A DNA stretch of 64,000 bases. It comes from a virus. How positions within the stretch are numbered: position 1 is the stretch's first letter; each line of letters opens with the position of its first letter. The stretch lies in the IMG/VR virus record IMGVR_UViG_3300045012_000181, positions 1 to 64,000 of that record; one strand, given 5' to 3'. Positions 10,138 to 41,894 of this stretch are shown here, piece by piece. Made by a program: the position numbers and the translations under genes. The notes under the pieces were generated by a model. The model searched no databases and was not told the origin of the DNA. It saw nothing but the letters and a program-made list of their open reading frames with translations.

Positions 10138-11090
10138 TGCGAGGCCTCCGTCGTTGTGGCTTTCTCCAGGGCCTTCTCCAGCAACTTCTGTTTGTAGTAC
10201 TCCGGGAAGCCTCGCAGCACTCCGCGCTCCACATCGTTATAGAACTCCTTCATCAGCCGTTTACTGATGAAATCGTGGTGTTCCATACCGAAGTCCTTCT
10301 TGACTGCACCAATAAGGTAGCCAATATCTTTGGCCTCACCCACCAGCTGGCCTTCATCGCGGGCGTGCTGGATGGCCTTTTCCCAGACGGCCTCTTTGTT
10401 GAAGGTCGCGATTATGCGGTCAATTATGTTGCCTTGCTTCTGCTGGTCCCAGTTGGCCGCGTTCTGTTCCTTGAAGTCATCGGCCACAATCTTGGCCGCG
10501 AGCATCTTGCCGAAGCCATCACAGCGCCCGTAATTCTTTATGACGACGCCCTCTATTCTGGGTCCGCCCAGAAAGCTCTCCCGATTGGCCCAGTTCTCCG
10601 TGTAAAATTTAAGGGCCTCATGCATCGTCAATGTGCCCTCGAAGAGCGTGGGCGCAACCTCCAAGGACCACTTGGCGGCCAGATGGGCCACCTGTCGAGG
10701 CGCCAAGTACATCTCCGAACCGTCCTTCTCGGAAATGTCCCAGATGACCACGTTACCCACCGGGACGCGCTTGTAACTTAGGGTGTTGTGGTGGGGCTTG
10801 TCCAGGCATTCTCCACGAATAACCATGCCTTCGGGAATGGTACCAGTTTGGAAGACCAAATCGGCCGTGCGGACTGCGGCCTTGAACATACCTTCCTGGT
10901 TGCCTCCGTATCCAATCTGCTGGCCCTTGGAGCGGCAGTGCAATTCGCCGTTCAAGTTGCCGAAACTAAACTGCGAACCATCGACCTTCTCTTGAACAAC
11001 GACGGCCCCGGTGAAGAGACCCTGGGCCTGCATGTGCGAGAGTGCCCAAACCTTACTGTAACCGGATAGTTGTGCCACGGTCAGCTCCAA
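10134..11090 (-). CDS. T4 Rnl2-like RNA ligase
   Basis: 318 aa with the nucleotidyltransferase ligase motifs: QEKVDGSQFSFG near residue 33 (motif I, adenylated Lys), GMVIRGECLDKP near 87, IEGVVIKNYG near 177 (motif IV) and GKMLAAKIV near 192 (motif V). It seals nicks in duplex RNA through an AMP-lysine intermediate. The C-terminal 100 residues are helical, as in Rnl2-like ligases. With RtcB and Ro60 elsewhere in the window it forms a set of RNA repair functions. Confidence 0.85.
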   Translation of the reverse strand: MELTVAQLSGYSKVWALSHMQAQGLFTGAVVVQEKVDGSQFSFGNLNGELHCRSKGQQIGYGGNQEGMFKAAVRTADLVFQTGTIPEGMVIRGECLDKPHHNTLSYKRVPVGNVVIWDISEKDGSEMYLAPRQVAHLAAKWSLEVAPTLFEGTLTMHEALKFYTENWANRESFLGGPRIEGVVIKNYGRCDGFGKMLAAKIVADDFKEQNAANWDQQKQGNIIDRIIATFNKEAVWEKAIQHARDEGQLVGEAKDIGYLIGAVKKDFGMEHHDFISKRLMKEFYNDVERGVLRGFPEYYKQKLLEKALEKATTTEASQ

Positions 11091-20234: not shown

Positions 20235-21038
20235 TTAGCAGGGCGTGCCCCATGTGGCCTCTTCGTCCAATTCGTCCTGTGGGGGCAACTCGCCAAAGGG
20301 CCCCTTGGAACCCGCTTGCAATTGCGCCTTCAGGGCCCACTGCCTGTACTGCTGAAAACCCTGCAGCTGCACATTGAAATTGAACTTCCAGCGCGAATAG
20401 CAGTTGCTGTCATCGCACATGGGAATGCCCCAGTGCGCATTGGAGGTCTCCTGCTTGCAGGCAAAACAGTAACGTTGGGTCTTGCTGGACAACTTGGCAT
20501 ATCTATAGAGCGCAGTCAGGTGCAATTTGCAGGAGCTCTTGTTGTGATGTTCGAGCATCTTGTCTCGCCCCCGGAACAGTACCTGACACCAACGGCAGGT
20601 GCCCTCGTTGAGCGCGGAATAGTTCAAAGAGAAGCCCTTCCAATAGCGGTAATCATCATTGATGAGATTGCCCTTGGGCACCAGGCTCTTCTGTGAGACC
20701 TGTTGTTGGGACTTCTGGAGCTGGCCCTTGCGGCGCGATTTGGCGATGGCCTTGTCGAAGATGGCCTGTTCATCCGCGGTCTTGGGCCGGTAGTGCGCCG
20801 GCAAGGGACTGTAGCCCCCGGAATCCCAAGAGGGCCTAGCCGGGCTGAAGGGCACGATATGGCTACCGTGGATGACTTCTCGCTTGCCACCTCGGGGACG
20901 ATGGCCACCACGCTTCTTGATGGCCTGTAGTGCCCAGGCGGGCGGATCAATCTCACCGAATTTAAAACTGTCGAAAACCGGGAACTCCGTCAGGAAATCC
21001 CTCTCGTCCAAATCAAAAGGCTTGGGATGTCGGGGCAC
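20235..21038 (-). CDS. Hypothetical protein with zinc-binding motifs (267 aa)
   Basis: CRWCQVLFRGRDKMLEHH near residue 165 and CFACKQ...CDDSNCY near 211 look like two zinc fingers. The first half is Pro/Gly/Lys-rich. Its start lies inside the end of the HisRS-like gene, so the two are probably co-translated. Function unknown. Confidence 0.6.
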   Translation of the reverse strand: MPRHPKPFDLDERDFLTEFPVFDSFKFGEIDPPAWALQAIKKRGGHRPRGGKREVIHGSHIVPFSPARPSWDSGGYSPLPAHYRPKTADEQAIFDKAIAKSRRKGQLQKSQQQVSQKSLVPKGNLINDDYRYWKGFSLNYSALNEGTCRWCQVLFRGRDKMLEHHNKSSCKLHLTALYRYAKLSSKTQRYCFACKQETSNAHWGIPMCDDSNCYSRWKFNFNVQLQGFQQYRQWALKAQLQAGSKGPFGELPPQDELDEEATWGTPC

Positions 21039-21651
21039 TTAGATTCTCCTGTCGCACCAGCAGTAATCGGTCCAAGCCAATGGCCCAGCCTTGACCCTCG
21101 GCGTACGGGCCCCCTCCGGCCACTTGCAAGCCCCCGGCCCAGACCTCGAAGCCCTTCTGGGTGTAGTAGGCCTGACCACGTTCCACTTCCAAGCGCCATT
21201 CCCAGTTCTTCAGACCTAACTGGTCTAAACACAGCGCCAACAAATTTCGTAACTCCGCCGGGGATGTGATGGCAGGCATCTCCTCGATGCCAAACTGCCA
21301 GAATTCCCTCCAGCGTCCGCGTTGGGGCCGGTCATAGCGGTAACAACGCTGGCAGTACCAGAGTCTAAGAGGCTTGGGCAGTCTTTGGTCGCCAACCCAG
21401 TGTTCTCGGAATTGCTGCCTTAGAACCGCGGTGACCTCGGGCAACAAAACCTCCCGTCGGCCCGAGCGTTCGGTACTTAATTCAAAGGCCCGGTTGTCGC
21501 CAATTTGGCCCTGAAAGAGTTCCAAACTCTGTAGTGAGCTGACCACCGCGGGCTCGAAGCTGGCCTTCTCAACTACCAGACGAAGTTGAGTCTGGGCATC
21601 CAGCAGTTCCCGGGCCTCGGGGCCCATTAACAAGCGAGTACCTCGAACCAT
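21013..21651 (-). CDS. Stand-alone HisRS-like class II aminoacyl-tRNA synthetase core
   Basis: 212 aa with class II core motifs: VRGTRLLMGPEARELL (HisRS-like motif 1 region), YRYDRPQRGRWREFWQFGIE near residue 105 (motif 2, ATP-binding Arg) and GGGPYAEGQGWAIGLDRLLL near 180 (motif 3). It lacks the anticodon-binding domain and is half the size of HisRS, so it is a HisZ-like or aminoacyl-ligase-like paralogue. It might charge or activate an amino acid for the amidoligase pathway; that is inference. Confidence 0.8.
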   Translation of the reverse strand: MVRGTRLLMGPEARELLDAQTQLRLVVEKASFEPAVVSSLQSLELFQGQIGDNRAFELSTERSGRREVLLPEVTAVLRQQFREHWVGDQRLPKPLRLWYCQRCYRYDRPQRGRWREFWQFGIEEMPAITSPAELRNLLALCLDQLGLKNWEWRLEVERGQAYYTQKGFEVWAGGLQVAGGGPYAEGQGWAIGLDRLLLVRQENLSAPTSQAF

Positions 21652-21897: not shown

Positions 21898-22149
21898 CTA
21901 GCGGCGGTCCAGCCAAGGCAGGGGCTCGGGCAGCCGACGAACACTCGAAACCACCGAGAGCGAGTCCATGTCGATGATGAGGAGCGGGGCCTCGTTCAAG
22001 TAGGCATTACTGCTTTGGGTCTTGAGGAAGACCTCCATGCCCTTCTTGGCGTCCTCCAAGGTTTTGAAGGCATACTGACTTCCAGGGACATTACCACCAT
22101 GAGCCATGAAGCAACCACTATTTGTCGTCGGGGCTATTGCAATAAACAT
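21898..22149 (-). CDS. Hypothetical protein (83 aa)
   Basis: A small alpha/beta protein (AFKTLEDAKKGMEVFLKTQ) following GGAGACTCTAG. It is the last clear gene before the gene-poor, hairpin-rich stretch to its right. Function unknown. Confidence 0.6.
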   Translation of the reverse strand: MFIAIAPTTNSGCFMAHGGNVPGSQYAFKTLEDAKKGMEVFLKTQSSNAYLNEAPLLIIDMDSLSVVSSVRRLPEPLPWLDRR

Positions 22150-22194
22150 CTAGAGTCTCCTTGGGCTTCTAAATTGCGGGCCAGCAGGCGCATT

Positions 22195-22293
22195 CTATAG
22201 AGCATCCAGAGTGCCTAGGCGGAACTCACCGCCCCCGCGGGCCCTTTTACGGCTTGCGCGTACAACATCTTCCATAAGATTTTTAGGGCCCAT
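22195..22293 (-). CDS. Possible 32-aa peptide
   Basis: ATG at 22293 opens MGPKNLMEDVVRASRKRARG and ends LGTLDAL. A GGGG stretch sits upstream but is poorly spaced. It could be chance. Confidence 0.3.
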   Translation of the reverse strand: MGPKNLMEDVVRASRKRARGGGEFRLGTLDAL

Positions 22294-22827
22294 GCATGCG
22301 TGCCCCTATGTTGCACACGCCTGCAACTACAGGCCCACCATAAGATTCAGCTCGGACCCGAGTTTGGGCGCGCTACCCAAACATGGTCGGAGCCTTCTTG
22401 TGGTCGCCCTACGTTTCCTTGGGATATAGGAAGACAAGGCATTGTGGCACTTATGTGCGGGGCTCTGAATCAGAGTAACTCCCCACACGGGCCTGACAGC
22501 TATTTGTTCGCTGCCCACCGAATAGCGGGCTTTGGAGTACGACGAAGGGGTACAACACCCCTCCGGCATGACCCGCTTCCGGAACTAACAACGAACGCTT
22601 CGTGGTCCTCGGAAGAGCACGTCTTCTACGAGGACAATCGCACTATAATCGAGCCCGCTAGGAATCCTGAGACTCCTGCTTGGACGGCTCTTAGCACAAG
22701 TGCGATATCGGACCTTGATGACAGCGGTTTTTGTAACGGCTCCCGCTGGAGCATGTGGAGTCATGTGCGTTGGTTCACCCGGGGTGTTTTCGGGACCCTC
22801 AGGTGAATTTCTTTAGAAACAGGCGCT
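22294..22827 (-). ncRNA. Candidate large structured RNA, region 1 (about 530 nt without a gene)
   Basis: No frame here looks coding. Strong hairpins are packed along it: 22350-22393 (GCTC/GAGC, GACC/GGTC and TTTGGG/CCCAAA stacked), 22455-22488, 22524-22577 (with GGGGT/ACCCC at 22547-22561), 22605-22635 (GTCCTCG/CGAGGAC plus GAAGA/TCTTC), 22661-22676 and 22722-22748 (CAGCGG/CCGCTG). This density resembles the giant ornate RNAs (GOLLD, ROOL) of phages. The minus strand is assumed because all neighbours are minus. Boundaries are approximate. Confidence 0.55.
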
Positions 22828-23142
22828 CTACCTCACCAGCTTCTTGGCCCAGAGCGTGACCTTGTTGCCCGAGTTGGGGTTGGTGAAGGTGAAGACCTTT
22901 TTGAATTTGTGAAATTTGAGGGCTCGTACAGCGGCCGACTGGGCCGGAATCGTTGTGGCAATGAGCCCACCAGGGGTGAATTCGTCGCCATACATCTCGT
23001 TGTTGCTGGCCAGATCTTGGCGCTCTTGTGCCAAGGCCTCCAGATGATTTTGGATACTCTGTTTAATGGTCCGGTAGGACCCGTTAAAGTTGCCCAGTTC
23101 ATTCATGGCGCAACAGTGCTCGAAATTGTTCAGGTACGACAT
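22828..23142 (-). CDS. Hypothetical conserved phage protein (104 aa)
   Basis: Starts MSYLNNFEHCCAMNELGNF, has a helical centre (QNHLEALAQERQDLASNN) and a basic beta C-terminus. It sits alone between the two gene-free structured stretches. An internal ATG (MNELGNF) is an alternative start. Function unknown. Confidence 0.65.
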   Translation of the reverse strand: MSYLNNFEHCCAMNELGNFNGSYRTIKQSIQNHLEALAQERQDLASNNEMYGDEFTPGGLIATTIPAQSAAVRALKFHKFKKVFTFTNPNSGNKVTLWAKKLVR

Positions 23143-23154
23143 CCCGTAGTCCTC

Positions 23155-23826
23155 CTATAAGGAATTGAAAACAAAGAATTTCTGGGCCGTAGAATCGCAC
23201 GAGGGTATCCAGGTTGCTCGGCACCATCAGGCGCTTCCTTATCGTTGTAACCGCTCTCAGTCCGAAGCCGCTGCTACGCAGCGTAAAAGTCACCAACCAA
23301 GCCACAAGGGCCGGGATTTACAGTTTTTTACGTCGCGCAGCGACGGCCCCGAGGGGGCCCGCTGGTAACACGCCCGCATGAATAAAACATCCGTCGTCAA
23401 GTGCCAAGCGGACTCCCGGGAGGGCTCCAGTTACGGAGAATGCCCGTTCATCCTTCGTGGCAAACATCCCCCGCGGTGCCAAACGGACCGGGTGAATCCA
23501 ACAGAGGCTTCGTAGGCCTCTGCCGTGTTGCTTATAGGTGGCCCATCTGGCACTACGGGAATGCAACAAGGGACTTCCACGCGAAAAAGGAGGCCCGGAG
23601 GCCAGCTTAGACGCATTAAACTACCCCAGCTACCCCGCATCTGGCGGGGCGGTGTTTCAACAATGGAACCGCCTAGTGGCCCAGTTCATCGCCACGGAAG
23701 CACCGGATTCTTGCGAATCAAATGCCGGGCCCAGAAGGGCCCACCCAAGACGATGCGTCAACTGCGACCCCAATGTTTCTGCGGCCCAGGCTCGTTCAGA
23801 CGCTATAAGGGCGTCTGTGAAATTCG
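23155..23826 (-). ncRNA. Candidate large structured RNA, region 2 (about 670 nt without a gene)
   Basis: Gene-free and dense in near-perfect hairpins: 23269-23283 (CGCTGC/GCAGCG), 23331-23345 (CGTCGC/GCGACG), 23345-23359 (GGCCCC/GGGGCC), 23503-23521 (AGAGGC/GCCTCT), 23633-23649 (CCCCGC/GCGGGG), 23706-23719, 23727-23742 (GGGCCC/GGGCCC) and 23798-23816 (AGACGC/GCGTCT). On the minus strand the 23706 hairpin is GATTC-GCAA-GAATC, a GNRA tetraloop, which supports minus-strand transcription. Together with region 1 it flanks a single 104-aa gene. Confidence 0.6.
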
Positions 23827-24315
23827 TTATAGAGTTTTGCCCATTACAAGAACGGTGTGCCCTGTCCGCTTGTTCTTGAATTTGGACAATTCTTCCCATT
23901 TGTGGTCACTGAGAATGGCAATCTCGGGTTTGTTGTCCGCGAGTACAGTGGCCTGAGCGTAAGTGTAACCGGCTTTGCGGGCGGCTTCTTCACGCAACTC
24001 CAACAACAGGCCTCCAAGCCCACGCTTCTGGAAGTCCGTGGCAACGCTACAGTGGTAAAAGACGGCCACCCCGCAACAGCCCGGCAACTCGCTCACTGAG
24101 AACTGAGAAATCTGGGCGTACTTTCCTGCCCCGTATGTGGCTAGTACGAAGGTATCTTCCTTGGTAACTTCAATGATAGGTTCACTTCCAACAATCTTAC
24201 GAATATCATCTCGGAAGCTCGCTGCTGCAGCAGCCACGGCCTGATTCCGCGAGAGACTGTATTCCCTCACGGTCGTGGCCTTGGCCATTGGTTTGTAGCT
24301 GTTGTCGTCGCCCAT
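23827..24315 (-). CDS. GNAT-family N-acetyltransferase
   Basis: ATG at 24315 follows AAGGAGAAAACA. The 162-aa product has the GNAT core: CGVAVFYHCSVATDFQKRGLGG (acetyl-CoA-binding Q/RxxGxG/A variant KRGLGG) then LLELREEAARKAGYTYAQA. The C-terminus is basic. The substrate is unknown. Its position in the amidoligase-rich region suggests a tailoring role. Confidence 0.8.
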   Translation of the reverse strand: MGDDNSYKPMAKATTVREYSLSRNQAVAAAAASFRDDIRKIVGSEPIIEVTKEDTFVLATYGAGKYAQISQFSVSELPGCCGVAVFYHCSVATDFQKRGLGGLLLELREEAARKAGYTYAQATVLADNKPEIAILSDHKWEELSKFKNKRTGHTVLVMGKTL

Positions 24316-24337: not shown

Positions 24338-24730
24338 TCAACCACCAAACATCCCACCACCGTGGCCGTACCAGTCCTTGGACTGCGCCGGAGTCATGGC
24401 CTGGCCGCGGTTCTTACGCCACAGCGCAGATTTCGTGCAGGCCTGCAGCCCACAAGTCCACACATTGTCCTTCTCATCCCACTTGACAGCGGGATAGCCG
24501 CATTCGCAAATGCGGTTTAGGAATATATAACCCAGGCCCTGACAAAAATCACAAGCGGGCATGGCGCTTCTGTAGTAGCCCTTAAAGCGCCCCCGAGGGT
24601 GTTTGCCGTTGGGCCCTTGGCCCATTTGATTGTCCGGGCGGTCTGCCAAACCGGGCGTCCGGGTGCAGTTGGGACAGGGGCGCATATGCGCGATGTTTTC
24701 CTGAATGTCTTTGAGCGGGGCCTTACTCAT
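24338..24730 (-). CDS. DnaJ-type zinc-finger-like protein (130 aa)
   Basis: Four cysteine knuckles: CPNC near residue 19, CDFCQGLGYIF near 60 (CxxCxGxG of DnaJ type), CECG near 74 and CGLQAC near 92. Gly/Gln-rich C-terminus. Probably a scaffold or RNA-associated zinc protein. Confidence 0.65.
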   Translation of the reverse strand: MSKAPLKDIQENIAHMRPCPNCTRTPGLADRPDNQMGQGPNGKHPRGRFKGYYRSAMPACDFCQGLGYIFLNRICECGYPAVKWDEKDNVWTCGLQACTKSALWRKNRGQAMTPAQSKDWYGHGGGMFGG

Positions 24731-25265: not shown

Positions 25266-25597
25266 CCCAAATCTCCCTTGGCTTTTTGCACGGCTCTAAA
25301 CAACCTAGTGAAGACCTTTGAGGGCTTGCCTTTTACAGATGCCAACATGGCCTCGCTTGCGCGCAGCAGTTCAGGTGCTGCAATCCTCAGGTGGCTGTTC
25401 GCTTCTAGCTTTTCCCTGTACATCGTCATATTGGGGTTGCTTAAGTGGTCGAAAATTTCCCGCAGAATATTTCCGCAGCCCAAACAGGGTTGGTGGCAGG
25501 CCATGTTGGCCAAGTAGACCAAACAAGCCGTACGCAGTTCCAATAATTCCAAGGCGCTGTCGCGTTCCGCCTCGGCGCTTGTCAGCTCGTCACACAT
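25262..25597 (-). CDS. Hypothetical helical protein (111 aa)
   Basis: The start at 25597 (MCDELTSAEAERD) coincides with the stop of the amidoligase. Mainly helical, with MACHQPCLGCGNI, a possible metal site. Function unknown. Confidence 0.6.
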   Translation of the reverse strand: MCDELTSAEAERDSALELLELRTACLVYLANMACHQPCLGCGNILREIFDHLSNPNMTMYREKLEANSHLRIAAPELLRASEAMLASVKGKPSKVFTRLFRAVQKAKGDLG

Positions 25598-26781
25598 CAG
25601 CCTAGGTCTTTCCACGCGGGCACCTGTGTCCACAGCCCGCCCACCTGCCAGTCCTGTACGACATCCAAGCCCCAGCCCCCGATGACCTTGTCCAGCCCGC
25701 CCTCAATGGCCGCCCAGAAGGCCTTCTCGGAACCGTACATCAAGCGCGCCCACTGGGTGTAAAACTCCCGGTTAAGTTTCATGAAGTCCTTGGCGCTGCG
25801 CACATCGCCGTAATTGATGGTATCCCGGATGCTCTGTTCGCGGTCCGCGCCTACGAAGATGCCCCGAAATCGGGCCCGGCCAATATTCAAGGCATGTCGA
25901 GCCAAGTCGAACACCAGCATGAAAGCCCTGGGATGCATCAGCCAAAAGTTCGATAGCGTCCGGTACTCCAGCCCATGTGGCGGCAGGCGAAATTCCCCGG
26001 CCAGACCGTAGTATCTGCGCCTGATAAAGTGGTCATAATTCTGCGCCAGGGCCACACAGGGAATGCCCAGCAGGGCATCCAGGGTCTTAACCAGATAGCG
26101 GATGTTCTCGATTTCGCGCTCTTCCTCCGGCAACTCAAAATGCACATGCCCCCCGGCGAAACGCCAGTTGAGGCAGCGGGGACGCTCCACACGCCGACCA
26201 CTGGAACCGTAGGCATTCCGGCTGGGGTCGCAACCCAGTGAGACGTGGGCCTCCGAGGCCAGCTGGAGCATGATGGGCGGAACACGCCAGACGCTCTGTG
26301 GGGCGATGTTGAGGCCCTTCTGGGCGAGGGCCTGCAGTTGCCGGCCAATCTGCTGGGCCAAGATGGCATGGCACTTGATTTTGTGGGCCTTGCAGCTCGC
26401 CGTGCACCACTTATAACAGGCCTTCGGGTCCACGGTGGTTTCGGCCTGAAAGCCATCCCAGAATAGGCCATCCGTGGTGCCATGCTTGTCCGGCAGGAAG
26501 TCAAAAGCCGGAACAACTTGGCGTTCGCCATTCAGGCGCAGGAAAAATTCCGGATCGGTGCCCATAACGGGCTCCACGCCATAACAAGTATCGATGCCTT
26601 CAACGGCCGCCGTCAAAGAAGGCACACGGGGCGTCAGCCCGGCCCTAACGGGACCAGACTTAACCCTGATGGGTCTGAGGCCCTTCTCGGCGAAGAGCAT
26701 GTCCTTCTTTAAGAACCATACATCTTGGCCGTAGCGCTGGCCCAATTTGGGCCCTTGTGGGGAATTTCGTGCCAGGTCCAT
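25597..26781 (-). CDS. phiEco32-type amidoligase, copy 3
   Basis: 394 aa: GTDPEFFLRL near residue 75, DGFQAETTVDPKAC near 107 and AGGHVHFELPEEE near 208 followed by LEYRTLSNFWL. These are the metal and nucleotide sites of the glutamine-synthetase-like amidoligase fold. The tail AAIEGGLDKVIGGWGLD is glycine-rich. It sits with a gamma-glutamylcyclotransferase, which supports a gamma-glutamyl or peptide amide product. Confidence 0.82.
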   Translation of the reverse strand: MDLARNSPQGPKLGQRYGQDVWFLKKDMLFAEKGLRPIRVKSGPVRAGLTPRVPSLTAAVEGIDTCYGVEPVMGTDPEFFLRLNGERQVVPAFDFLPDKHGTTDGLFWDGFQAETTVDPKACYKWCTASCKAHKIKCHAILAQQIGRQLQALAQKGLNIAPQSVWRVPPIMLQLASEAHVSLGCDPSRNAYGSSGRRVERPRCLNWRFAGGHVHFELPEEEREIENIRYLVKTLDALLGIPCVALAQNYDHFIRRRYYGLAGEFRLPPHGLEYRTLSNFWLMHPRAFMLVFDLARHALNIGRARFRGIFVGADREQSIRDTINYGDVRSAKDFMKLNREFYTQWARLMYGSEKAFWAAIEGGLDKVIGGWGLDVVQDWQVGGLWTQVPAWKDLG

Positions 26782-32032: not shown

Positions 32033-33205
32033 CTAGTCTTTGTAGGGATCTCTGATGTCCGGACCGGCCATCGCAACCCCGACCGGGACAAGTTGATGCA
32101 GAATTTTGATGCTATCACCGTGTTCGGCCAGCACCTCAGGCAGCCTTTTGTAGCAATCCGGGCTCTCGTCCAACCCGGCTCCCCGCAGTTCCACATGGGC
32201 CTTTTGGAGCCAACCGTCCATCATTTCCTTCGTGACCTTACCAGCACGCAGGACCGCACCGGTCTTCCGATGCACCTTGCCGGCGGCCTCCCGACGGCCC
32301 ATAACACGTCCGGCGCCATGCACGGTGCTATAGAGCGAATACTGGGCCTCCTCGTTCTGCACGCCCTCCAAAATTACGCTGCGTTCGCCCATCGTGCCGC
32401 CTACAAAGCCCCTCTGACCGGGAAAGGCCGGAGTGGCGCCTTTCCGTACAACCCACAGGTCCTCTCCGCCATGCGTCTCGCGCCAAGCGAAATTGTGGTG
32501 GTTGTGTACCTCTTCCAAAATCTTGGCACCTAAAATCAAGGCGACTTTCTGACAGACCCAATCCCTGCCAGCGTAGGCATACTCTCCGGCCAGCTGCATG
32601 CACTGCAAGTATTCCGCGCCCAGCGGACCCTCAACGGGTATCACACAGGGTTCCACGTCCATACCATCTTTGGCTCCGGCTTTGTTCAGAAACCAAGTTG
32701 CGGTCTTGTGACCCAGCCCTCTAGAACCGAAGTGCACGCCCACCCAGACCCTATCCTGTTCATCCGTAAACAAGTCCACATAATGGTTGCCCGAGCCTAC
32801 AGTTCCGAGCTGGTCGGATGCCATCTTCTTCAGGGGCGCGATGGCCTCACAGGACCAAGCCGGACTATCGAACAGCGCGTGGTCTACAGATTCAGCGTTC
32901 TGGCGGCCAATGCCAAAGGCAATATTTTTCCACACATCATCCATGATTTGCCTGATGCCCGCTCGAAGCGCACTCCCGGGCATATCTGTTAAAACGGCCT
33001 TGTTACCGCAGGCGATATCGAAGCCCACGCCAGACGGCGAGATGCTGGCCTTGTAGGCCACCACGCCGCCGATTGGCACGGCATACCCAAAATGCCCATC
33101 CGCCATGAGGGCGGCTTTGTCGGCCGTTCGGGCACACGTGCGGATCTGCTTCAGGGTGTTTTCATCGTGCTTGCCCCAGATGGGAATGCCTTCAACGATG
33201 TTCAC
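32033..33205 (-). CDS. rtcB: RtcB-type RNA-splicing ligase
   Basis: 390 aa. Motifs in order: ALMADGHFGYAVPIGGV near residue 33, GFDIACGNKAVL near 59 (metal-binding Asp and Cys), VHFGSRGLGHKTA near 157, VHNHHNFAWRE near 234, RKGATPAFPGQRGFVGGTMG near 250 and STVHGAGRVMGRREA near 287 with the guanylated His. It joins 2',3'-cyclic phosphate or 3'-phosphate to 5'-OH ends using GTP and Mn. In enterobacteria rtcB is in one operon with Ro60 (rsr) and Y RNA genes; here both occur in one phage. Confidence 0.93.
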   Translation of the reverse strand: MNIVEGIPIWGKHDENTLKQIRTCARTADKAALMADGHFGYAVPIGGVVAYKASISPSGVGFDIACGNKAVLTDMPGSALRAGIRQIMDDVWKNIAFGIGRQNAESVDHALFDSPAWSCEAIAPLKKMASDQLGTVGSGNHYVDLFTDEQDRVWVGVHFGSRGLGHKTATWFLNKAGAKDGMDVEPCVIPVEGPLGAEYLQCMQLAGEYAYAGRDWVCQKVALILGAKILEEVHNHHNFAWRETHGGEDLWVVRKGATPAFPGQRGFVGGTMGERSVILEGVQNEEAQYSLYSTVHGAGRVMGRREAAGKVHRKTGAVLRAGKVTKEMMDGWLQKAHVELRGAGLDESPDCYKRLPEVLAEHGDSIKILHQLVPVGVAMAGPDIRDPYKD

Positions 33206-33960
33206 TGTTTCTCCAGCAGTTCGATATAGGTACTTAAAAGATGGTTTAGAATCAAATCTAGCCCAAAGGGCGCCTTCAGGCGCACCCGGTTGTTCACATG
33301 CGAGAAGGGCGGCGCCGTGGGCAGATTGGGAATCACATCCCAGGGGTTCTCGTACCGACGGGTAGTTGGGGCCGAGCCCAAATCATACCAGTGCGTCCAG
33401 TCGGCATCTCCAACTCGGGGACTGCCGAACGTAACGCTACTCAAATCAAAATCACTGAAAGCACTGTTTTGCGCCAAGAAGTCCAGATGGTCCACTAGGA
33501 TTGTTCCAAGTGCGCCTCCGAGACTGTGCCCCGCTACCACAACGGCATCCACCTGCTGGCTCTCCAAGAGACTGCGCACGTAATCCGCCAAGGTTACGGA
33601 TTTGGCCGCGGGGCTATTCTTGGCCAGTTGGAGGCTCTTGTAGACCTCCAAAAAGCCCGCATGCACCAGGCCATGCCCCCAAGGACACGGTACAGGAAGG
33701 GCTGTGGCGTCGTCCAGCCACTCCAGCAGCCTTCGGGGGTCCGTGCCCCTTAAGCACACGATGAGCGCTTTGTCCTGTTGGGCCAGGAATCCAAAGCTTA
33801 CCTCCAGAACATTTGGGGGCAAATCCGCTCCGCGAATCTCCTGCAGAAAATTACAGCCCAGGGTTTTGATGGCTGCGAATTGCTCAGGTCCGTATGCGCC
33901 AGGAATACCCGCTACTTGAACCAGACGGGCCAACGTCAGGTCATTGAGAGTGTTTGGCAT
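33202..33960 (-). CDS. Class 3 lipase-like alpha/beta hydrolase
   Basis: The start at 33960 (MPNTLNDLTL; AGGA upstream) gives 252 aa. KALIVCLRGTDPRRLLEWLDD (oxyanion region), GLVHAGFLEVYKSL, VVVAGHSLGGALGTIL (nucleophile Ser in GxSxG), FGSPRVGD (Asp region) and a C-terminal HVNNRV (His) follow the fungal-type lipase family. No signal peptide, so it acts in the cell or is released by lysis. Uncommon in phages; cell-envelope lipid is a possible target. Confidence 0.8.
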   Translation of the reverse strand: MPNTLNDLTLARLVQVAGIPGAYGPEQFAAIKTLGCNFLQEIRGADLPPNVLEVSFGFLAQQDKALIVCLRGTDPRRLLEWLDDATALPVPCPWGHGLVHAGFLEVYKSLQLAKNSPAAKSVTLADYVRSLLESQQVDAVVVAGHSLGGALGTILVDHLDFLAQNSAFSDFDLSSVTFGSPRVGDADWTHWYDLGSAPTTRRYENPWDVIPNLPTAPPFSHVNNRVRLKAPFGLDLILNHLLSTYIELLEKQ

Positions 33961-33971
33961 TCTTGGCATTC

Positions 33972-34100
33972 CTACCGGCCCCTTACGAAGGCCCTGAAGG
34001 CCCTTATGCACGTGGCCAGCCCAACGAAGGCCAGCACCCAGACCACCCCACAGGCCGTCCACAGATACCAAGGAATATAGATACCGCCAGCGTCCGACAT
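33972..34100 (-). CDS. Small membrane protein (42 aa)
   Basis: ATG at 34100 follows AGGAGGCTCTT. A transmembrane helix (LWTACGVVWVLAFVGLATC) and an Arg-rich end (RAFRAFVRGR). A longer frame from the lipase gene covers it only as shadow. Function unknown. Confidence 0.6.
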   Translation of the reverse strand: MSDAGGIYIPWYLWTACGVVWVLAFVGLATCIRAFRAFVRGR

Positions 34101-34109
34101 AAGAGCCTC

Positions 34110-34292
34110 CTATTGGTGGTACTTGTTGATTACGTTCTGAATGCGCTTCTTGAGGGCTTCCAGCTCAGTTGGTGATTTGGCCTCGAACAGCACCTTGCTG
34201 ACGTAGACCACGCCGTGCCTCTGAAGAAGCTGCAGAATTTCGTCCACGATTTCAACAGAGATGGCGGTCGATAATTTGTCGGATGCGCTCAA
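34110..34292 (-). CDS. Hypothetical helical protein (60 aa, start uncertain)
   Basis: TTG at 34292, or a shorter GTG version at 34247, encodes DEILQLLQRHGVVYVSKVLFEAK and a helical C-terminus (ELEALKKRIQNVI). The TTG version overlaps the neighbour by 41 bases; the GTG start nearly abuts its stop. Function unknown. Confidence 0.5.
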   Translation of the reverse strand: MSASDKLSTAISVEIVDEILQLLQRHGVVYVSKVLFEAKSPTELEALKKRIQNVINKYHQ

Positions 34293-34422
34293 GGATGGCC
34301 CCCCGGTCGTATTCGTCCATTAAATCACCGTTGTCTCGTGTCATGGACCACTCGTTCGTATCCGCGCCCAGACCAACGATGTGCTCAGCAATTTCCTGTG
34401 CGGCCTTCTGGGAATCCGTCAT
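34252..34422 (-). CDS. Hypothetical acidic protein (56 aa)
   Basis: ATG at 34422 overlaps the stop of the membrane gene upstream (ATGA). MTDSQKAAQEIAEHIVGLG and a helical, acidic C-terminus with LMDEYDRGAILERIRQII. Function unknown. Confidence 0.6.
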   Translation of the reverse strand: MTDSQKAAQEIAEHIVGLGADTNEWSMTRDNGDLMDEYDRGAILERIRQIIDRHLC

Positions 34423-34640
34423 GGTCGTGTATTCTTAATCAAGCAGCCCAACATATAGATTGCCATTAATCCGGCTGGCAGCAAGATTGCCGGTACGAGG
34501 CCCATTAATATACAAATATACAAATCGCCTCGCGAATCCGGCCAATAACCTTCGGAAATCCTGTAAACCGGCGCTCCAATAAGGGCCAAGAGGGTTAGTG
34601 TAATTAAGATGACGCCCAATCCCAACAGGAAACAAATCAC
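34419..34640 (-). CDS. Membrane protein with two transmembrane segments (73 aa)
   Basis: GTG at 34640 follows GGGAGGATCT, which decides the start over longer frames. Segments VICFLLGLGVILITLTLLAL and CILMGLVPAILLPAGLMAI are hydrophobic. Holin-like size, but no proof. Frames upstream (34641-34755) contain only a possible 15-aa peptide. Confidence 0.6.
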   Translation of the reverse strand: MICFLLGLGVILITLTLLALIGAPVYRISEGYWPDSRGDLYICILMGLVPAILLPAGLMAIYMLGCLIKNTRP

Positions 34641-34755
34641 AGATCCTCCCAATCCCCGGAACCTCCAGAATTCGCCAGCCACAACGAACCCAAAAGGGCC
34701 CAACCTCAAATGAACAGCGAGCCACAAGTGAGAATCACGAAGCCCTCGGGCATGG

Positions 34756-35034
34756 CTAGGACACTCCTACAACGGTTAAATTCGTGGGTGGGGCCAATCC
34801 TCCAGTGGGCGTTCGTGTGATGGCCCCGGTTTGGATACTCACAACGGCGCCTAATGGGACCTCATGGCCCACGCTATCGAAGGCATACAGCTGGCCCGTG
34901 GAGGGGTTACAGCCGATGCCCTCAGGATACACACCGTCCACCCTGAAGCTCACATAGGCCAGCGTGGTGCCATCCGAGAGCTCCAGGGTGCAATCAAAGG
35001 AGCCATCCGCGTTGGGCACGTTGTTGCAGCCCAT
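34756..35034 (-). CDS. Hypothetical beta-rich protein (92 aa)
   Basis: Starts MGCNNVPNADGSFDCTLEL; contains GIGCNPSTGQLYAFDSVGHEV and ends in an Fn3-linker-like PPTNLTVVGVS, similar to the ends of Fn3 proteins of the late region (PPTNLQVASVS at 62236). Possibly a surface or decoration protein although on the minus strand. Confidence 0.6.
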   Translation of the reverse strand: MGCNNVPNADGSFDCTLELSDGTTLAYVSFRVDGVYPEGIGCNPSTGQLYAFDSVGHEVPLGAVVSIQTGAITRTPTGGLAPPTNLTVVGVS

Positions 35035-35037
35035 GAT

Positions 35038-35478
35038 TTAGACTGAGGGCTGGACTGCTGGAGAGGCCTTCGTGGTCGATGGAACACAGGCCGGTGCGAC
35101 CAAGAGGCCCACACGCCTGCGAAAATTGGCCGAGCGCTCCTTGGGCCTTCGAACCTTCAGCCAGTAGGCCTTCCAAATGGCCTCTCGGGCCTCGCGGGGC
35201 ACCTGTTCCAGGGCTCTCGTGAGGGCCAGCCGGCTGGCCACGGACTTGACAAAATTGTCTTTCTTGCTGCACAGGGCTTCGCCCTTCAGGCCCGTGACGC
35301 AGTGCTTAGGCTCCGAAGTGCCCACGACGCAGATTCCCGTATGTACAAGTGCTCGCGTTACCACGTCCCAACTGCGACGTTTCCTACGGGACAGCTTGCT
35401 GTCATCCTCCAAAAACTCATGGTGGATATGGATGTACCAGTGTTGGGCCTTCTCGCCTTCACCTATTTCTAGGATCAT
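35038..35478 (-). CDS. Hypothetical basic protein (146 aa)
   Basis: Begins with a beta part (QHWYIHIHHEFLEDDS) and then a Lys/Arg-rich helical region (REAREAIWKAYWLKVRRPKE). Function unknown. Confidence 0.6.
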   Translation of the reverse strand: MILEIGEGEKAQHWYIHIHHEFLEDDSKLSRRKRRSWDVVTRALVHTGICVVGTSEPKHCVTGLKGEALCSKKDNFVKSVASRLALTRALEQVPREAREAIWKAYWLKVRRPKERSANFRRRVGLLVAPACVPSTTKASPAVQPSV

Positions 35479-35492
35479 GAATGGTCTCCTTT

Positions 35493-35774
35493 TTAGATTC
35501 CCAAGAGCCTACGTTCCTCTGGGGTAAGCTTTTTGAGGGCCTTCTTGCGCATGGAGAGCCTGTCGGCCTCCTCCCGCTCACGCTTGAGGCACTCGCGGTC
35601 CTTTAGTTCATGCTCTTTAATCCAATTCCGGGTCTCCTTGCTCAAATTATTAATAGGGTAAATGCGGCTGCCATCTATGTAACCAGACAATTCGCAGGCC
35701 ACCCGGGTTACACGCTCCAGTTCCACACGAAGACGGTCCGCGTCTTCGGCGTCGTAATCAGACCTACAAGGCAT
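35493..35774 (-). CDS. Hypothetical conserved phage protein (93 aa)
   Basis: The start at 35774 (MPCRSDYDAEDADRLRVELE) matches the usual beginning of short phage proteins (MPCRSDY). A helical body with Cys and a charged C-terminus (KKALKKLTPEERRLLGI). Function unknown. Confidence 0.7.
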   Translation of the reverse strand: MPCRSDYDAEDADRLRVELERVTRVACELSGYIDGSRIYPINNLSKETRNWIKEHELKDRECLKREREEADRLSMRKKALKKLTPEERRLLGI

Positions 35775-35775
35775 C

Positions 35776-36006
35776 TCAGCACCTCGAAAATAGCGTAAGG
35801 AATTCCAACTTAGTGCGAGCGTAATCGCCGGGGAAGGCATTCTCACCATGCTTAGTTGCAGCGCTCTGTGTGGCTTCGTATAGACCTAAGGCATCAATGG
35901 GTTTCTGCGTCAACTCCCATTGTACACGGCTGTCGTTTACAATAGCGTCCGTTGTGTTTTGGTCGATGCCCGAGCCCGCAAGCCACAAAACCAGATTAGT
36001 TTTCAT
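35776..36006 (-). CDS. Hypothetical protein (76 aa)
   Basis: MKTNLVLWLAGSGIDQNT then helical, acidic-to-basic text. Coupled to the NAMPT gene stop by ATGA. Function unknown; co-translation suggests a link to the NAD genes. Confidence 0.6.
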   Translation of the reverse strand: MKTNLVLWLAGSGIDQNTTDAIVNDSRVQWELTQKPIDALGLYEATQSAATKHGENAFPGDYARTKLEFLTLFSRC

Positions 36007-37451
36007 GTTCGTACGCGCTTTCGAATGGTATCGAAGTCCTCTCGAATCAACAACTTACCGTTGCTAAAAATCTTCTGGAAGGCACAGTTGTTAAGGGCTG
36101 CGGGCAACTGTTCATCTACGACATAAAGACCATCGGCCTTGCTGCTGTAAACAGCCGGAATGCCCTTCAAGGAGGCCTTGCTAAAACCGCCTTCGGCCGT
36201 AACGGGCTTCTTGAAAATATCCAGAATTTTGCCCGAACGCCTGACCGCAGTGGCCTTCATGGCGAATCCGTAGGTATCACGGGTGACGTATTCATAGGTA
36301 TAGGAACCTATTCCGAATACGATGTTAAACGGGCTCAGGCCCATCTTCACACAGCCCTCTAGAATGGCATCCGCACGCTCCAATGAGATGCCGTCGCCGT
36401 AAATCAAACCGGCTTTGTTGATGTGTCCGGCGCCGTCCGTGCCCAGCGCCCGGCGTAGCAGCTCTAAGGCCCCATAAGCCGCAGGGTGCGTGCCATAGGG
36501 TGCGTCGGAGTCGCCCAGCATGATCTTAACAGGGTCTCCGCTGTCCGGACGGATTACAACCTTGCCGTCCCGTGCGAGGATTTCCTTGCGCAGGGCCGGA
36601 ATGTACTCCATGAGAACCTTCCAAAGGTCCCAAGTATCCGATACGATGCTAACAATTCCAGTGGGATAGGTCTCCGTTATGAGACGCCTGAAGGTCTCGA
36701 ATTCACCATCCATACCACCGGCGCACATCACAGAATGTTCAGTGGCAGGGACGCTCCCACCACAGCTCAAGGGGGCATCATAGAATTCCCTAGCGGCCAG
36801 AATCGCGGGTATGGTATCCGTGCCGTTGAAGCTCAATAGATGACCCATACCGGAGAACATGGCGTCCTCCAACCCACTCATACCCCGATAGGAGAAATCG
36901 TGGCCCTGCCAATCCACGAAACTCAGGTCCTTCTCGCCAAAATTCCGGGCGTGCTTGATGAACAGTTCCCGGAAGCGGGCTGCTGTAGTTGCGGAGGTGG
37001 TGGACTTCCAGAGCGCATTAGATAACGCGGTCTCAAGAAAATTCGGAAGCCAATAGGCGCTATCATTGGTATTGGTTATGACAAGCATGGGCACGCCCAG
37101 CGGAACACGGGAGCCCTCCGGCAAGGCCCAAATATCCAGCGGAAGGTAGCCCAGTTCCCAGAGCCTTCTTATGTGGTCCAGTTTGGGCTCTTTGAGGCCC
37201 AATGTGGCCAGCACGAATTCCCTGTATTGTTCCGCTATAAGACTCCAACTCTGTTCAAAAAATGCCGGCTTCCAGCGCATGAGATTGTTCTGGATGAAGG
37301 CCCTTGCACCGAACCAGCGCACGTCCTTCTCGCCGGGTATTCGCGAACTGCGGGCCGTCCAGTTGGACCAGACCTGTTGCGTATCGGTGGGATATTGCTC
37401 CCAATGGTGAAGCTTATAAAAATCCGCGTGGTAAAGCGGTGAAGGGTTCAT
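36003..37451 (-). CDS. nadV: Nicotinamide phosphoribosyltransferase-like enzyme (NAMPT/NadV, or NARP1 Namat)
   Basis: 482 aa, full NAMPT length. Landmarks: KLHHWEQYPTDTQ near residue 12, DWQGHDFSYRGMSG near 185, SVPATEHSVM near 239 with the catalytic His, VVIRPDSGDPVK near 305 (ribose-phosphate binding) and FGIGSYTYEYVTRD near 383. The known reaction is nicotinamide + PRPP to NMN. Paired directly with a PRPP-synthetase-like gene. In NARP1 phages the same pair instead makes NAD+ from ADP-ribose (Adps + Namat). Which activity applies cannot be told by eye. Confidence 0.9.
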   Translation of the reverse strand: MNPSPLYHADFYKLHHWEQYPTDTQQVWSNWTARSSRIPGEKDVRWFGARAFIQNNLMRWKPAFFEQSWSLIAEQYREFVLATLGLKEPKLDHIRRLWELGYLPLDIWALPEGSRVPLGVPMLVITNTNDSAYWLPNFLETALSNALWKSTTSATTAARFRELFIKHARNFGEKDLSFVDWQGHDFSYRGMSGLEDAMFSGMGHLLSFNGTDTIPAILAAREFYDAPLSCGGSVPATEHSVMCAGGMDGEFETFRRLITETYPTGIVSIVSDTWDLWKVLMEYIPALRKEILARDGKVVIRPDSGDPVKIMLGDSDAPYGTHPAAYGALELLRRALGTDGAGHINKAGLIYGDGISLERADAILEGCVKMGLSPFNIVFGIGSYTYEYVTRDTYGFAMKATAVRRSGKILDIFKKPVTAEGGFSKASLKGIPAVYSSKADGLYVVDEQLPAALNNCAFQKIFSNGKLLIREDFDTIRKRVRT

Positions 37452-37454
37452 AGA

Positions 37455-38315
37455 CTAGTCTCTCCCACAGTTGTTGCACTCGCAATCGCACTCTTCGGAT
37501 TCGGGCATCTGGATACTGTATTCCGAGGTGAAGACCTGCTTGAAGTGCTTCAGCAACACGGCCCTGCCCTTGGAGAAAATTCCATGGCTCACGTACAAAT
37601 ACAGTTTCAAGTCGGGATTGATTTTTAAGAGCGCCTTAGCCAACCCAATAAAGGTTCCGCCGCCGTCGCAGATGTCGTCTATAATGAGGGCCTTCTTGGC
37701 GCGCTCCACTTGCGGCAGGTCCTCCCACCACACACTGAAGCCGCTGAGTTTGCCCGTCTTGGCATCCCGTTGCTTTCGACAGCAGGCCGTGGGCAAGCTA
37801 TAACGCAGGATGTCATAACGCTTATCTGAGCCTTCATCCGGCAAAATCAATACGAGGTCCCTACGACCCAGTTTCCTTATGATGGGCTGAATTTGGTCGC
37901 ATTGTCTATCCGTGGGATTGAGGTTGGCCAGATTTTCAAACAAATTGTGCGCCACGCCACTGTGCACATCAAAAGTCCAAACCACGCTGAAGTTCAAATT
38001 GTTAATCAACCGGGCCCAAACACCCAGGCCATGACTATCCCCGCCCACGAATCGACGGTCCGCACGGGCATAGGGCATGTAGGGCAGGAATAGACTGGAA
38101 CGCCAGAATCCGCCGGCGTGCTCAAGGGCGTCCTTGAGTTGGGCCAGTTCTATGATATCCGGGATGGGGTTGCAGATAATCTCAAACTCGTCTTTGCCCT
38201 TCACAGCGGCCAGCCCTTTGGCCGTTAGCCGGACTTGGATTTCGCCAGCTGGATAGTGGATTACGCTGTAGAGCACGCCCCGGTCTTGGGGGATTTTGAG
38301 GGTGAGTTTTTTCAC
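37455..38315 (-). CDS. prs: Ribose-phosphate pyrophosphokinase-like enzyme (Prs, or NARP1 Adps)
   Basis: 286 aa. YPAGEIQVRLTAKGL near residue 21, LPYMPYARADRRFVGGD near 75 (ATP/flexible loop region), VWTFDVHSGVAHNLFENL near 110, and the PRPP loop IIDDICDGGGTFIGLAKAL near 218. Slightly shorter than bacterial Prs. C-terminus is Cys-rich (CDCECNNCG), unusual for Prs. Four bases from the NAMPT gene, so translation is coupled. It makes PRPP for NAMPT, or phosphorylates ADP-ribose as Adps. Confidence 0.88.
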   Translation of the reverse strand: MKKLTLKIPQDRGVLYSVIHYPAGEIQVRLTAKGLAAVKGKDEFEIICNPIPDIIELAQLKDALEHAGGFWRSSLFLPYMPYARADRRFVGGDSHGLGVWARLINNLNFSVVWTFDVHSGVAHNLFENLANLNPTDRQCDQIQPIIRKLGRRDLVLILPDEGSDKRYDILRYSLPTACCRKQRDAKTGKLSGFSVWWEDLPQVERAKKALIIDDICDGGGTFIGLAKALLKINPDLKLYLYVSHGIFSKGRAVLLKHFKQVFTSEYSIQMPESEECDCECNNCGRD

Positions 38316-38968
38316 CAGCCAGCCTCCAACTTGTCATGTGGCACGTAGACTTGTACCTGCGAGCGCACTTCGTTTTTAGGTGGACGCTCGTTACCCAATG
38401 TTAGGCGTACGAAGGCTCTCCAACCATCCTTGGTCGCGGGCATACCTCTGTGAAATGTCATACTATCGAATTCGTAAAGACCCTCGGAATACGCAGTGGC
38501 CGCATGCCCTGAATATACATCCTTAGGAAGGTCGTTTATGAGAGTGTTATAGAAACCGTACACAGGACCGGACCCCTTTGGTTCGGGCATCTGCAAGGGG
38601 AAATCCAAAAATTCCGTGAGGCTGGCATCACCGTAGAGCACCATGAAATGTCGGGAGTTGTGTGCCGGCCAAAGATTAGCCAAATCCGGCTGTCCGCCAG
38701 TTGGTCGGTAGAAATCATCACAGTGCCAACCCGGTATGCAAGGATACCAGCCCTTCTTTAGCATGGTGACTTTCACATCCAGACTTTGGTACTTGAAGGA
38801 AAAGGGGTTCACGGGCAGGTGGCTTATGAAGTCCCATAGGAGCGGAGCCTTTTTTAGGGCGAAGGCCACATCTGCCCTATAAAGCATGGGCATGGTGCGA
38901 ATTTGCTCCTGTGTTAGGAAGAAGAGCTTGCGGTTGTGATAGGTGAATTTGTTGGAAAACTCAATCAT
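38312..38968 (-). CDS. Possible 2OG-Fe(II) oxygenase-like protein (218 aa)
   Basis: ATG at 38968 overlaps the upstream stop (ATGA). GWHCDDFYRP (H-x-D candidate), MVLYGDASLTEFLDF and YEFDSMTFHRGMPATKDGWR (distal His and Arg) are arranged like the double-stranded beta-helix metal site. The family is not certain. It follows the NAD gene pair and may share its transcript. Confidence 0.45.
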   Translation of the reverse strand: MIEFSNKFTYHNRKLFFLTQEQIRTMPMLYRADVAFALKKAPLLWDFISHLPVNPFSFKYQSLDVKVTMLKKGWYPCIPGWHCDDFYRPTGGQPDLANLWPAHNSRHFMVLYGDASLTEFLDFPLQMPEPKGSGPVYGFYNTLINDLPKDVYSGHAATAYSEGLYEFDSMTFHRGMPATKDGWRAFVRLTLGNERPPKNEVRSQVQVYVPHDKLEAGW

Positions 38969-39198
38969 TGAAAGTTCACCGGCCCCCAAGGGCATCGAAT
39001 TTTGTCCTGAACCCATCCCAGTCCTATTACTGCATAGATGCCACCAAAGGCCAATAGAAAAAGTGGTCCCCACAGGGGCGAAAGCAGCGCAACCAATATC
39101 ACGCGCATCCAGTAACCGCAAGCAGAAGGCACACGGAAGGAGTTTGTGGTAAAATTCCGCCAAATCCAATAGTGCCAGCTTTGTTTGGAGATGTTCAT
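38965..39198 (-). CDS. Membrane protein (77 aa)
   Basis: A basic N-terminus then two hydrophobic stretches (MRVILVALLSPLWGPLFLLA and FGGIYAVIGLGWV). Function unknown. Confidence 0.55.
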   Translation of the reverse strand: MNISKQSWHYWIWRNFTTNSFRVPSACGYWMRVILVALLSPLWGPLFLLAFGGIYAVIGLGWVQDKIRCPWGPVNFQ

Positions 39199-39227
39199 TT
39201 TTGTGGCTCAACCGCTCAAGGAACTCC

Positions 39228-39584
39228 TTAGGATTTCCTAACCAACGTCGAAATCACCGCCACCAGAAACACTCCCACGGCCAGCACGCAGAAAATATCA
39301 CCCAGACTGTAGCGCGCCCAGTCATCGCCATAGACATCAGCCAGGAACTTTAGGTGCGTCTGCGGCGTCAGAACCACATGCAGATGGTCCGAAGGCGGTA
39401 TGAAGGGTCGAAATCCACGCATATCCACGGGCATGTGACCATCGTTGGCCGCGATTACCAGGCCGTTCATCAAACCAGCCAAAGCAGCCAGAGCCGTAGC
39501 CACGCCCGGGGCCCATCGGCGCTTACGCCACAGATACCAGGTGGCTCCGAGGGCCAGCAGGGTGGCCAATATTTCGCTAGTCAT
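39228..39584 (-). CDS. DUF5317-like membrane protein (118 aa)
   Basis: Two or three membrane segments surround NDGHMPVDMRGFRP and HVVLTPQTHLKFLADVY, then YSLGDIFCVLAVGVFLV. This matches the DUF5317 pattern (xNGxMP, T-xLxxLxD, SxGDxxL). Cellular role unknown. Its start is immediately downstream of a strong terminator-like hairpin. Confidence 0.7.
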   Translation of the reverse strand: MTSEILATLLALGATWYLWRKRRWAPGVATALAALAGLMNGLVIAANDGHMPVDMRGFRPFIPPSDHLHVVLTPQTHLKFLADVYGDDWARYSLGDIFCVLAVGVFLVAVISTLVRKS

Positions 39585-39615
39585 AATAAGAGGGCCGGGT
39601 TCCGAGGCCCGGCCC
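39583..39615 (-). terminator. Rho-independent terminator after the Ro60 gene
   Basis: On the minus strand GGGCCGGG pairs with CCCGGCCC and is followed by TCTTATTATG. It ends the Ro60 transcript and abuts the start of the DUF5317 gene. A second small hairpin (CGCCC/GGGCG) lies between it and the Ro60 stop. Confidence 0.65.
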
Positions 39616-39686
39616 AGTAGAGACGGCCTTCTTAGGTACTGGCGGAGACTCTTGTTTTACGCCCAGTGGGCGAATTTTCCCACGCT

Positions 39687-41081: not shown

Positions 41082-41099
41082 GTGCTCTCCTTAAAAAAT

Positions 41100-41184
41100 G
41101 CCCGGGAATCAAGCGAATGCGGTTATGCCTGTTAGGGCATTCTCATTTTCAGTAAGAAGTAACCGCACTCTAACGTCACCGAGC
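41100..41184 (-). ncRNA. Y RNA gene 1 (nearest Ro60)
   Basis: Basal helix GCTCGG/CCGGGC (41179-41184 with 41100-41105); internal loop 5' TGACGTTA and 3' GCTTGATTC; then an 11-bp helix GAGTGCGGTTA/TAACCGCATTC, a TACTTC motif and a head containing TGCC/GGCA. ATTTTTT follows the basal helix. The loop sequences differ slightly from the other four RNAs while pairing is kept. Its 5' arm overlaps the end of the 41176-41430 gene, and it ends just before the Ro60 ribosome binding site. Confidence 0.75.
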
Positions 41185-41430: not shown

Positions 41431-41445
41431 CGGGCCTCCAAAAAT

Positions 41446-41803: not shown

Positions 41804-41814
41804 TTGAACTCAAA

Positions 41815-41880: not shown

Positions 41881-41894
41881 CGGAGCGTAGCTCC

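What the first reader, a model, noticed from the sequence alone, without database searches (positions are those of the whole stretch)
23155..23826. Second gene-free, hairpin-dense stretch adjacent to the first (part 2)
Seen: about 670 nt with at least eight near-perfect hairpins and a GCAA tetraloop hairpin on the minus strand (23706-23719). The two stretches flank only one 104-aa gene, so they may be two RNAs or one long RNA with an inserted gene. Total structured length is about 1.2 kb.
Basis: partly seen in the sequence, partly recalled or inferred. Interest (0 to 1): 0.8.

Follow-up and report, generated by a model that had tools for sequence, protein, structure and literature searches.

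The report
Two orphan structured phage RNAs
A phage of unknown host carries two neighbouring gene-free stretches of about 670 bases whose minus-strand RNA would fold far more tightly and definitely than chance allows, so they are probably two long working RNAs, but no relative, transcript or function is known yet.

Summary
Window 23155-23826 (R2) and its neighbour 22150-22827 (R1) lack coding signal and fold, as minus-strand RNA, far better than shuffled sequence (z about -5 to -6 and -6 to -8; 24 mostly genic control windows -0.7 +/- 1.6). Their ensembles are also unusually definite: 44-45% of bases have one partner at P>0.9, against 17-20% in shuffles and at most 36% in 87 other stretches of this window. 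The minus strand folds better than the plus strand, and all neighbouring genes lie on the minus strand. R1 and R2 share about 9 of ~410 pairs, and R2 keeps 95% of its pairs inside its flanks, so they are two RNAs, not one RNA with an inserted gene.

No Rfam family matches, including ROOL, GOLLD and OLE. No DNA relative turned up in 50,697 phage genomes, and none of the neighbouring proteins tried gave a relative that carries the locus, so covariation could not be tested. No promoter, terminator or tRNA is present.

Best reading: two separate large structured RNAs of the broad kind seen in phages (ROOL, GOLLD, the ICP1 long RNA), cut from a polycistronic transcript. Main rival: giant cis-acting spacers. 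Comparison phages gave two other conserved large RNAs absent from Rfam.

The parts
23155..23826 (-). R2: structured, non-coding stretch (the finding), about 672 nt, predicted autonomous fold
   Evidence: z -4.7 to -6.0, entropy 0.51 bits vs 1.01 +/- 0.27, 95% of pairs kept in context
23182..23789 (-). R2 long-range closing helix CUGGGCCG (23789-23782) / CGGCCCAG (23189-23182), continued inward by further helices
   Evidence: mean pair probability 0.95
23797..23817 (-). R2 5' hairpin CAGACGC-CCUUAUA-GCGUCUG; its loop is the possible pseudoknot partner
   Evidence: pair probability 1.00
23706..23719 (-). GCAA tetraloop hairpin GAUUC-GCAA-GAAUC
   Evidence: pair probability 1.00
23476..23553 (-). 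R2 14-bp helix GUGCCAGAUGGGCC / GGUCCGUUUGGCAC with a nested hairpin 23525-23499
   Evidence: mean pair probability 1.00
23531..23537 (-). R2 unpaired CUAUAAG, fully complementary to CUUAUAG at 23809-23803: pseudoknot candidate
   Evidence: a 7-nt match between unpaired stretches arises in 1 of 80 shuffles
22150..22827 (-). R1: companion structured, non-coding stretch, 678 nt
   Evidence: z -6.1 to -8.0, entropy 0.46 bits vs 1.04 +/- 0.24
22151..22830 (-). R1 outer helix: UAGAG of the 104-aa gene's stop (22830-22826) with CUCUA (22155-22151), then 3 bp and 9 bp more
   Evidence: mean pair probability 0.96-0.99; overall end-to-end pairing of R1 is not beyond shuffles
22294..22299 (-). R1 loop palindrome GCAUGC, possible self-kissing loop (hypothesis only)
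   Evidence: predicted unpaired; such a loop is expected by chance at this length (estimate)
22828..23142 (-). 104-aa gene between R2 and R1, with Shine-Dalgarno AGGAGG; no relative that carries the locus
23827..24315 (-). GNAT-type acetyltransferase gene directly upstream of R2
   Evidence: Pfam PF00583 E 4e-5
21898..22149 (-). 83-aa gene directly downstream of R1

Best explanation
R2 and R1 are two separate long structured RNAs encoded on the minus strand of a 125.6-kb phage record. They are transcribed within the surrounding run of minus-strand genes and folded into stable, autonomous, roughly 670-nt domains. Most likely they are released or protected as stand-alone RNAs and work through their shape, as a scaffold or RNA/protein particle, in the broad manner of the large phage RNAs ROOL, GOLLD and the ICP1 long RNA. 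Shown here: absence of coding signal and strong, definite, strand-biased predicted structure in two independent units. Inferred: transcription, processing from a polycistronic transcript, and action in trans. The phage also encodes a Ro60-type RNA-binding protein and an RtcB RNA ligase, which could handle such RNAs; that link is conjecture.
For: Fold z-scores and ensemble definiteness beyond all shuffles and beyond 87 non-overlapping stretches of the same window. Minus strand folds better than plus. No coding signal on either strand and no Pfam match in reading frames of either strand. R2 independent of its flanks, R1 86% so, and R1-R2 pairing negligible. Pseudoknot candidate in R2. Length and complexity are far above typical riboswitch-type leaders (general knowledge) and in the range of ROOL (574-position model) and GOLLD (over 800 nt, PMC12286853). 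Large structured gaps also occur in 7 of 10 other large phages examined.
Against: No RNA-seq. No relative, so no covariation test. No promoter or terminator of their own. Each sits flush between a stop codon and a Shine-Dalgarno, as a leader would. Not near tRNAs. Single-sequence folding cannot prove function.
Confidence: 0.5

Rival explanations
1. R2 and R1 are cis-acting structured spacers/leaders of one long mRNA that control translation or decay of the 104-aa and 83-aa genes. In R1 the outermost helix joins the stop codon of the upstream gene to bases next to the start codon of the next, so the fold could hold a finished ribosome near the next start or hide the Shine-Dalgarno.
For: Flush position between stop and Shine-Dalgarno in both cases; R1 outer helix includes UAG and AGG of the AAGGAGA motif; no own promoter or terminator. 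A comparable structured stretch precedes a small gene at 50600-50845 and in two related contigs.
Against: 670 nt is very long for a leader; most of the structure lies far from the gene starts; in R2 the Shine-Dalgarno is not firmly paired.
Confidence: 0.33
2. The structure serves DNA or arises without selection: GC-rich hairpin-forming DNA (packaging or replication signal) or decayed sequence such as a homing-endonuclease remnant.
For: The plus strand also folds better than shuffles (z about -3.3). A 29-nt match to an HNH-like frame of another phage lies on the plus strand (E 0.0047).
Against: Clear minus-strand advantage; entropy beyond every shuffle and other stretch; no family match for any frame tried; GC content equals the surroundings.
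Confidence: 0.12
3. One long RNA of about 1.35 kb interrupted by an inserted 104-aa gene.
For: Adjacency and similar length of the two stretches.
Against: About 9 of ~410 pairs join R1 and R2; each has its own closing helix.
Confidence: 0.05

Closest known systems
ROOL RNA (Rfam RF03087)
   Same: Large, highly structured non-coding RNA of phages, about 570-600 nt, unknown function
   Different: No match to the Rfam model at any useful score; no tRNAs in the record; multimer formation untested
GOLLD RNA (RF02032)
   Same: Large structured phage/prophage RNA, often over 800 nt (PMC12286853)
   Different: No model match; no tRNA neighbourhood
Vibrio phage ICP1 ~800-nt long non-coding RNA (PMC7567579)
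   Same: ORF-free space between co-directional genes in a ~125-kb phage without tRNAs; no strong Rfam match
   Different: Shown by RNA-seq to be the most abundant ICP1 transcript; its single-sequence structure signal is much weaker (z -2.4)
YrlA-type Y RNAs beside Ro60 genes
   Same: Same phage carries a Ro60 gene with a Y-RNA-like region at 41082-42039
   Different: R1 and R2 lack the permuted tRNA mimic found there and lie about 18 kb away

Membership tests
ROOL RNA | Match to the Rfam covariance model RF03087 | tested here: not met
   cmscan of the window and of 22100-23900 at E<=5, and a genome search of the record; no positive control rang
ROOL RNA | Frequent location near tRNA clusters | tested here: not met
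   no tRNA found by ARAGORN in the record
ROOL RNA | Homo-multimeric nanocage | not testable with these tools
   needs transcription and cryo-EM
GOLLD RNA | Match to Rfam RF02032 (conserved 3' region) | tested here: not met
   no positive control rang
OLE RNA | Match to its Rfam model | tested here: not met
   no OLE among matches at E<=5
Large structured phage non-coding RNA (broad kind) | Hundreds of nucleotides without coding signal | tested here: met
Large structured phage non-coding RNA (broad kind) | Structure beyond chance | tested here: met
Large structured phage non-coding RNA (broad kind) | Covariation across relatives | not testable with these tools
   no relative found
Large structured phage non-coding RNA (broad kind) | Abundant discrete transcript | not testable with these tools
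   no RNA-seq available
Y RNA (YrlA type) | Permuted tRNA mimic with T-arm and D-arm | tested here: not met
   in the window the T-arm scan hits only 41757 and 41490, none in R1/R2
Self-splicing intron, RNase P RNA, tmRNA or other Rfam family | Rfam match | tested here: not met
   only chance-level hits at E 1.7 and 3.9

The most novel reading that the evidence does not exclude
R1 and R2 are founding members of one or two new classes of ornate, self-assembling or Ro/RtcB-handled phage RNAs, unrelated in sequence to ROOL, GOLLD and OLE, carried as a tandem pair around a small gene.
Probability: 0.25. Interest if true: 0.8.

Novelty: new variant of a known kind. Interest (0 to 1): 0.5.

Why it matters
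The known ornate RNAs build protein-free cages or dimers, and the function of the phage ones is unknown. Two further, sequence-unrelated, strongly structured 670-nt RNAs in a phage that also carries Ro60, Y-RNA-like sequence and RtcB would widen that set and give an RNA-handling context to test. The comparison also shows that large phages hold other conserved large RNAs not in Rfam.

Tried and rejected
Homology to the RNAs beside a COOH.NH2 ligase in other phages: an eye-caught motif in R2 (CCTGGATACCCTCGTGCGATTC, 23213-23192 minus) resembled the L029/L032 RNA, but alignment z-scores (-0.5, 1.7) and a covariance model (5 bits, E 0.4 in a 1.7-kb search) gave no support. HNH-remnant idea from a 29-nt match: no Pfam support. 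R1 and R2 as duplicates of each other: no (alignment z 0.4). Ro-binding motif GGUCCGA in R1 (two copies): no matching UGACC partner strand within the range searched. Antisense action through a 16-nt match of R2 to 10678-10693: about 0.08 such matches expected by chance, not pursued. A GOLLD yardstick from mycobacterial genomes was not obtained. An association of structured gaps with the ligase: dropped, since other phages and other places have them too. Weak partial protein hits of the 104-aa gene in Pseudomonas and Mycobacterium contigs were not followed and are probably chance.

Full report
WHAT IS THERE. The window is the first 64 kb of a 125,606-base phage record. Genes around the finding all run on the minus strand: COOH.NH2 ligase (25597-26781), a GGACT-like gene, a 130-aa cysteine-rich gene (24338-24730), a GNAT acetyltransferase (23827-24315), then R2 (23155-23826), a 104-aa gene (22828-23142), R1 (22150-22827), an 83-aa gene (21898-22149), and a histidyl-tRNA-synthetase-like gene (21013-21651). 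The genome is gene-dense. R1 and R2 are two of only five gaps in the window longer than 550 nt. Codon-usage scores drop to background in all six frames over both gaps and rise again in the 104-aa gene. No open frame tried from either gap, on either strand, matches Pfam.

IS THE STRUCTURE REAL. R2 folds on the minus strand at -301 kcal/mol against -254 +/- 8 for dinucleotide shuffles (z -6.0), R1 at -282 against -240 +/- 7 (z -6.1); a second shuffle set gave -4.65 and -7.96. The plus strands reach only about -3.2, the difference expected if the minus-strand RNA is what counts. Twenty-four 677-nt control windows along the same strand average z -0.7 +/- 1.6, and the only one below -3 overlaps R1. 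The ensembles are unusually definite: mean positional entropy 0.46 (R1) and 0.51 (R2) bits against 1.04 and 1.01 in shuffles, none of 60 as low; 45% and 44% of bases have one partner with P>0.9 against 17% and 20%. Across 87 non-overlapping 677-nt stretches of the window the best values are 0.56 bits and 36%. The claimed GCAA hairpin is exactly where stated. Perfect Watson-Crick hairpins are in excess in R2 (6 against 1.2), but not if G-U pairs are counted.

ANATOMY. R2 has a long-range closing helix (23789-23782 with 23189-23182 and further helices inside it), a free-standing 5' hairpin (23817-23797), a two-hairpin arm that includes the GCAA loop, a 14-bp helix (23553-23540 / 23489-23476) and a long 3' arm (23352-23262). 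The 7-nt loop of the 5' hairpin (CUUAUAG) is fully complementary to an unpaired CUAUAAG at 23537-23531; such a match between unpaired stretches occurs in 1 of 80 shuffles, a moderate hint of a pseudoknot. R1 is a radial set of hairpins inside an outer helix that joins the upstream stop codon (UAGAG, 22830-22826) to CUCUA (22155-22151) beside the next start. Overall end-to-end pairing of R1 is not beyond shuffles (12.9 against 7.4 +/- 6.9), and that of R2 is about two standard deviations up (23.9 against 8.6 +/- 7.7), so the closing helices are suggestive only. In joint folding R1 and R2 share about 9 pairs; R2 keeps 95% and R1 86% of their pairs with flanks present. Two RNAs are therefore better supported than one interrupted RNA.

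RELATIVES. None were found. blastn against 50,697 phage records; peptide-pattern scans of IMG/VR with the 104-aa, GNAT, HisRS-like and 267-aa proteins; tblastn with the 104-aa, 130-aa and 267-aa proteins. The HisRS-like protein has distant relatives in huge phages, which were not examined for the locus. The peptide scans detect close relatives only. Terminase gave two short related contigs (L006 81%, L034 69% identity), which do not include this locus. Covariation is thus untested, which is the main weakness.

COMPARISON SET. Phages reached through the COOH.NH2 ligase turned out to have their own large structured gaps. Two pairs are mutually homologous: L026 791-1764 with L031 2236-3299 (24 of 77 predicted pairs with both sides changed and pairing kept; alignment z 10.8), and L029 with L032 downstream of the ligase (alignment z 5.2). 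The pair counts come from two-sequence alignments folded by RNAalifold, so they lean towards the structure. Neither pair matches Rfam. R1 and R2 are not detectably related to either. Gaps of at least 300 nt with z of -3.7 or lower occur in 7 of 10 phages scanned, so strongly structured gaps are not rare in such phages. R1 and R2 stand out in this genome but are not unique among phages. The expressed ICP1 long RNA, used as a yardstick, scores only z -2.4.

HOW IT MOST LIKELY WORKS. Shown: two non-coding, strongly and definitely folding minus-strand units. Inferred: they are transcribed with the minus-strand genes, since no promoter or terminator was found in them that stands out from chance, and then persist as separate structured RNAs. 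The main rival is cis control of the 104-aa and 83-aa genes, favoured by the flush placement between stop codon and Shine-Dalgarno. I put 0.5 on stand-alone RNA and 0.33 on cis element. Ro60 (39687-41081), RtcB (32033-33205) and a Y-RNA-like region (41082-42039) in the same phage make an RNA-handling role plausible but unproven.

NOVELTY. Large structured RNAs in phages are a known kind (ROOL, GOLLD, PMC12286853; ICP1, PMC7567579; phage K, PMC9241854). R1 and R2 fail membership of every named class tested and are best described as orphan RNAs of that broad kind.

Noticed in passing
L026:791-1764 and L031:2236-3299: A roughly 1-kb conserved structured RNA shared by two phages (61-76% nt identity in blocks), with motif AGAC-R-GGAAAAACTAA-4bp-GATnnAGACTAA-4bp-CAACGAG...GTCGGCC-Y-GTC and 24 predicted pairs with both sides changed; absent from Rfam.
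   Followed up: partly
L029:11415-11800 and L032:8738-9150: A second conserved structured RNA directly downstream of a COOH.NH2 ligase and a cysteine-rich gene in two phages, with 3' motif TAAACAAGG...GGGATTTGSATAC; not in Rfam.
   Followed up: partly
41082-42039 (core 41767-41703, minus): Y-RNA-like region upstream of the Ro60 gene: a permuted tRNA mimic with a GCAA-closed acceptor stem. Similar mimics lie upstream of Ro in another phage (L010 5766-6400, at least two) and T-arm-like motifs in L004; motif GATACTTC/GTTACTTC recurs.
   Followed up: partly
50600-50845, minus: A strongly folded stretch (z -7.7 with the following small gene included) with a closing helix, just before a small gene. 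Two related contigs also have folded sequence before their homologue of that gene (L006, L034).
   Followed up: partly
53745-53951, minus: 207-nt gap with a 21-bp near-perfect hairpin and a 13-bp helix, z -6.5; resembles an RNase III processing site.
   Followed up: no
21013-21651, minus: Stand-alone 212-aa histidyl-tRNA-synthetase-like catalytic domain; relatives of about the same span in huge phages such as Sinorhizobium phage Phosso.
   Followed up: no
L006:3219-5762: Terminase large subunit of a related phage contig is interrupted by an in-frame insert that looks like an intein (847-aa frame), absent from the window's terminase.
   Followed up: no
32033-41081, minus: Phage carries RtcB RNA ligase, class 3 lipase, nicotinamide phosphoribosyltransferase and Ro60 in one minus-strand run.
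   Followed up: no
G008 86648-87371 minus; G014 60340-60977 minus: Two further very strongly folded gaps in other phages (z -9.5 and -11.4).
   Followed up: no
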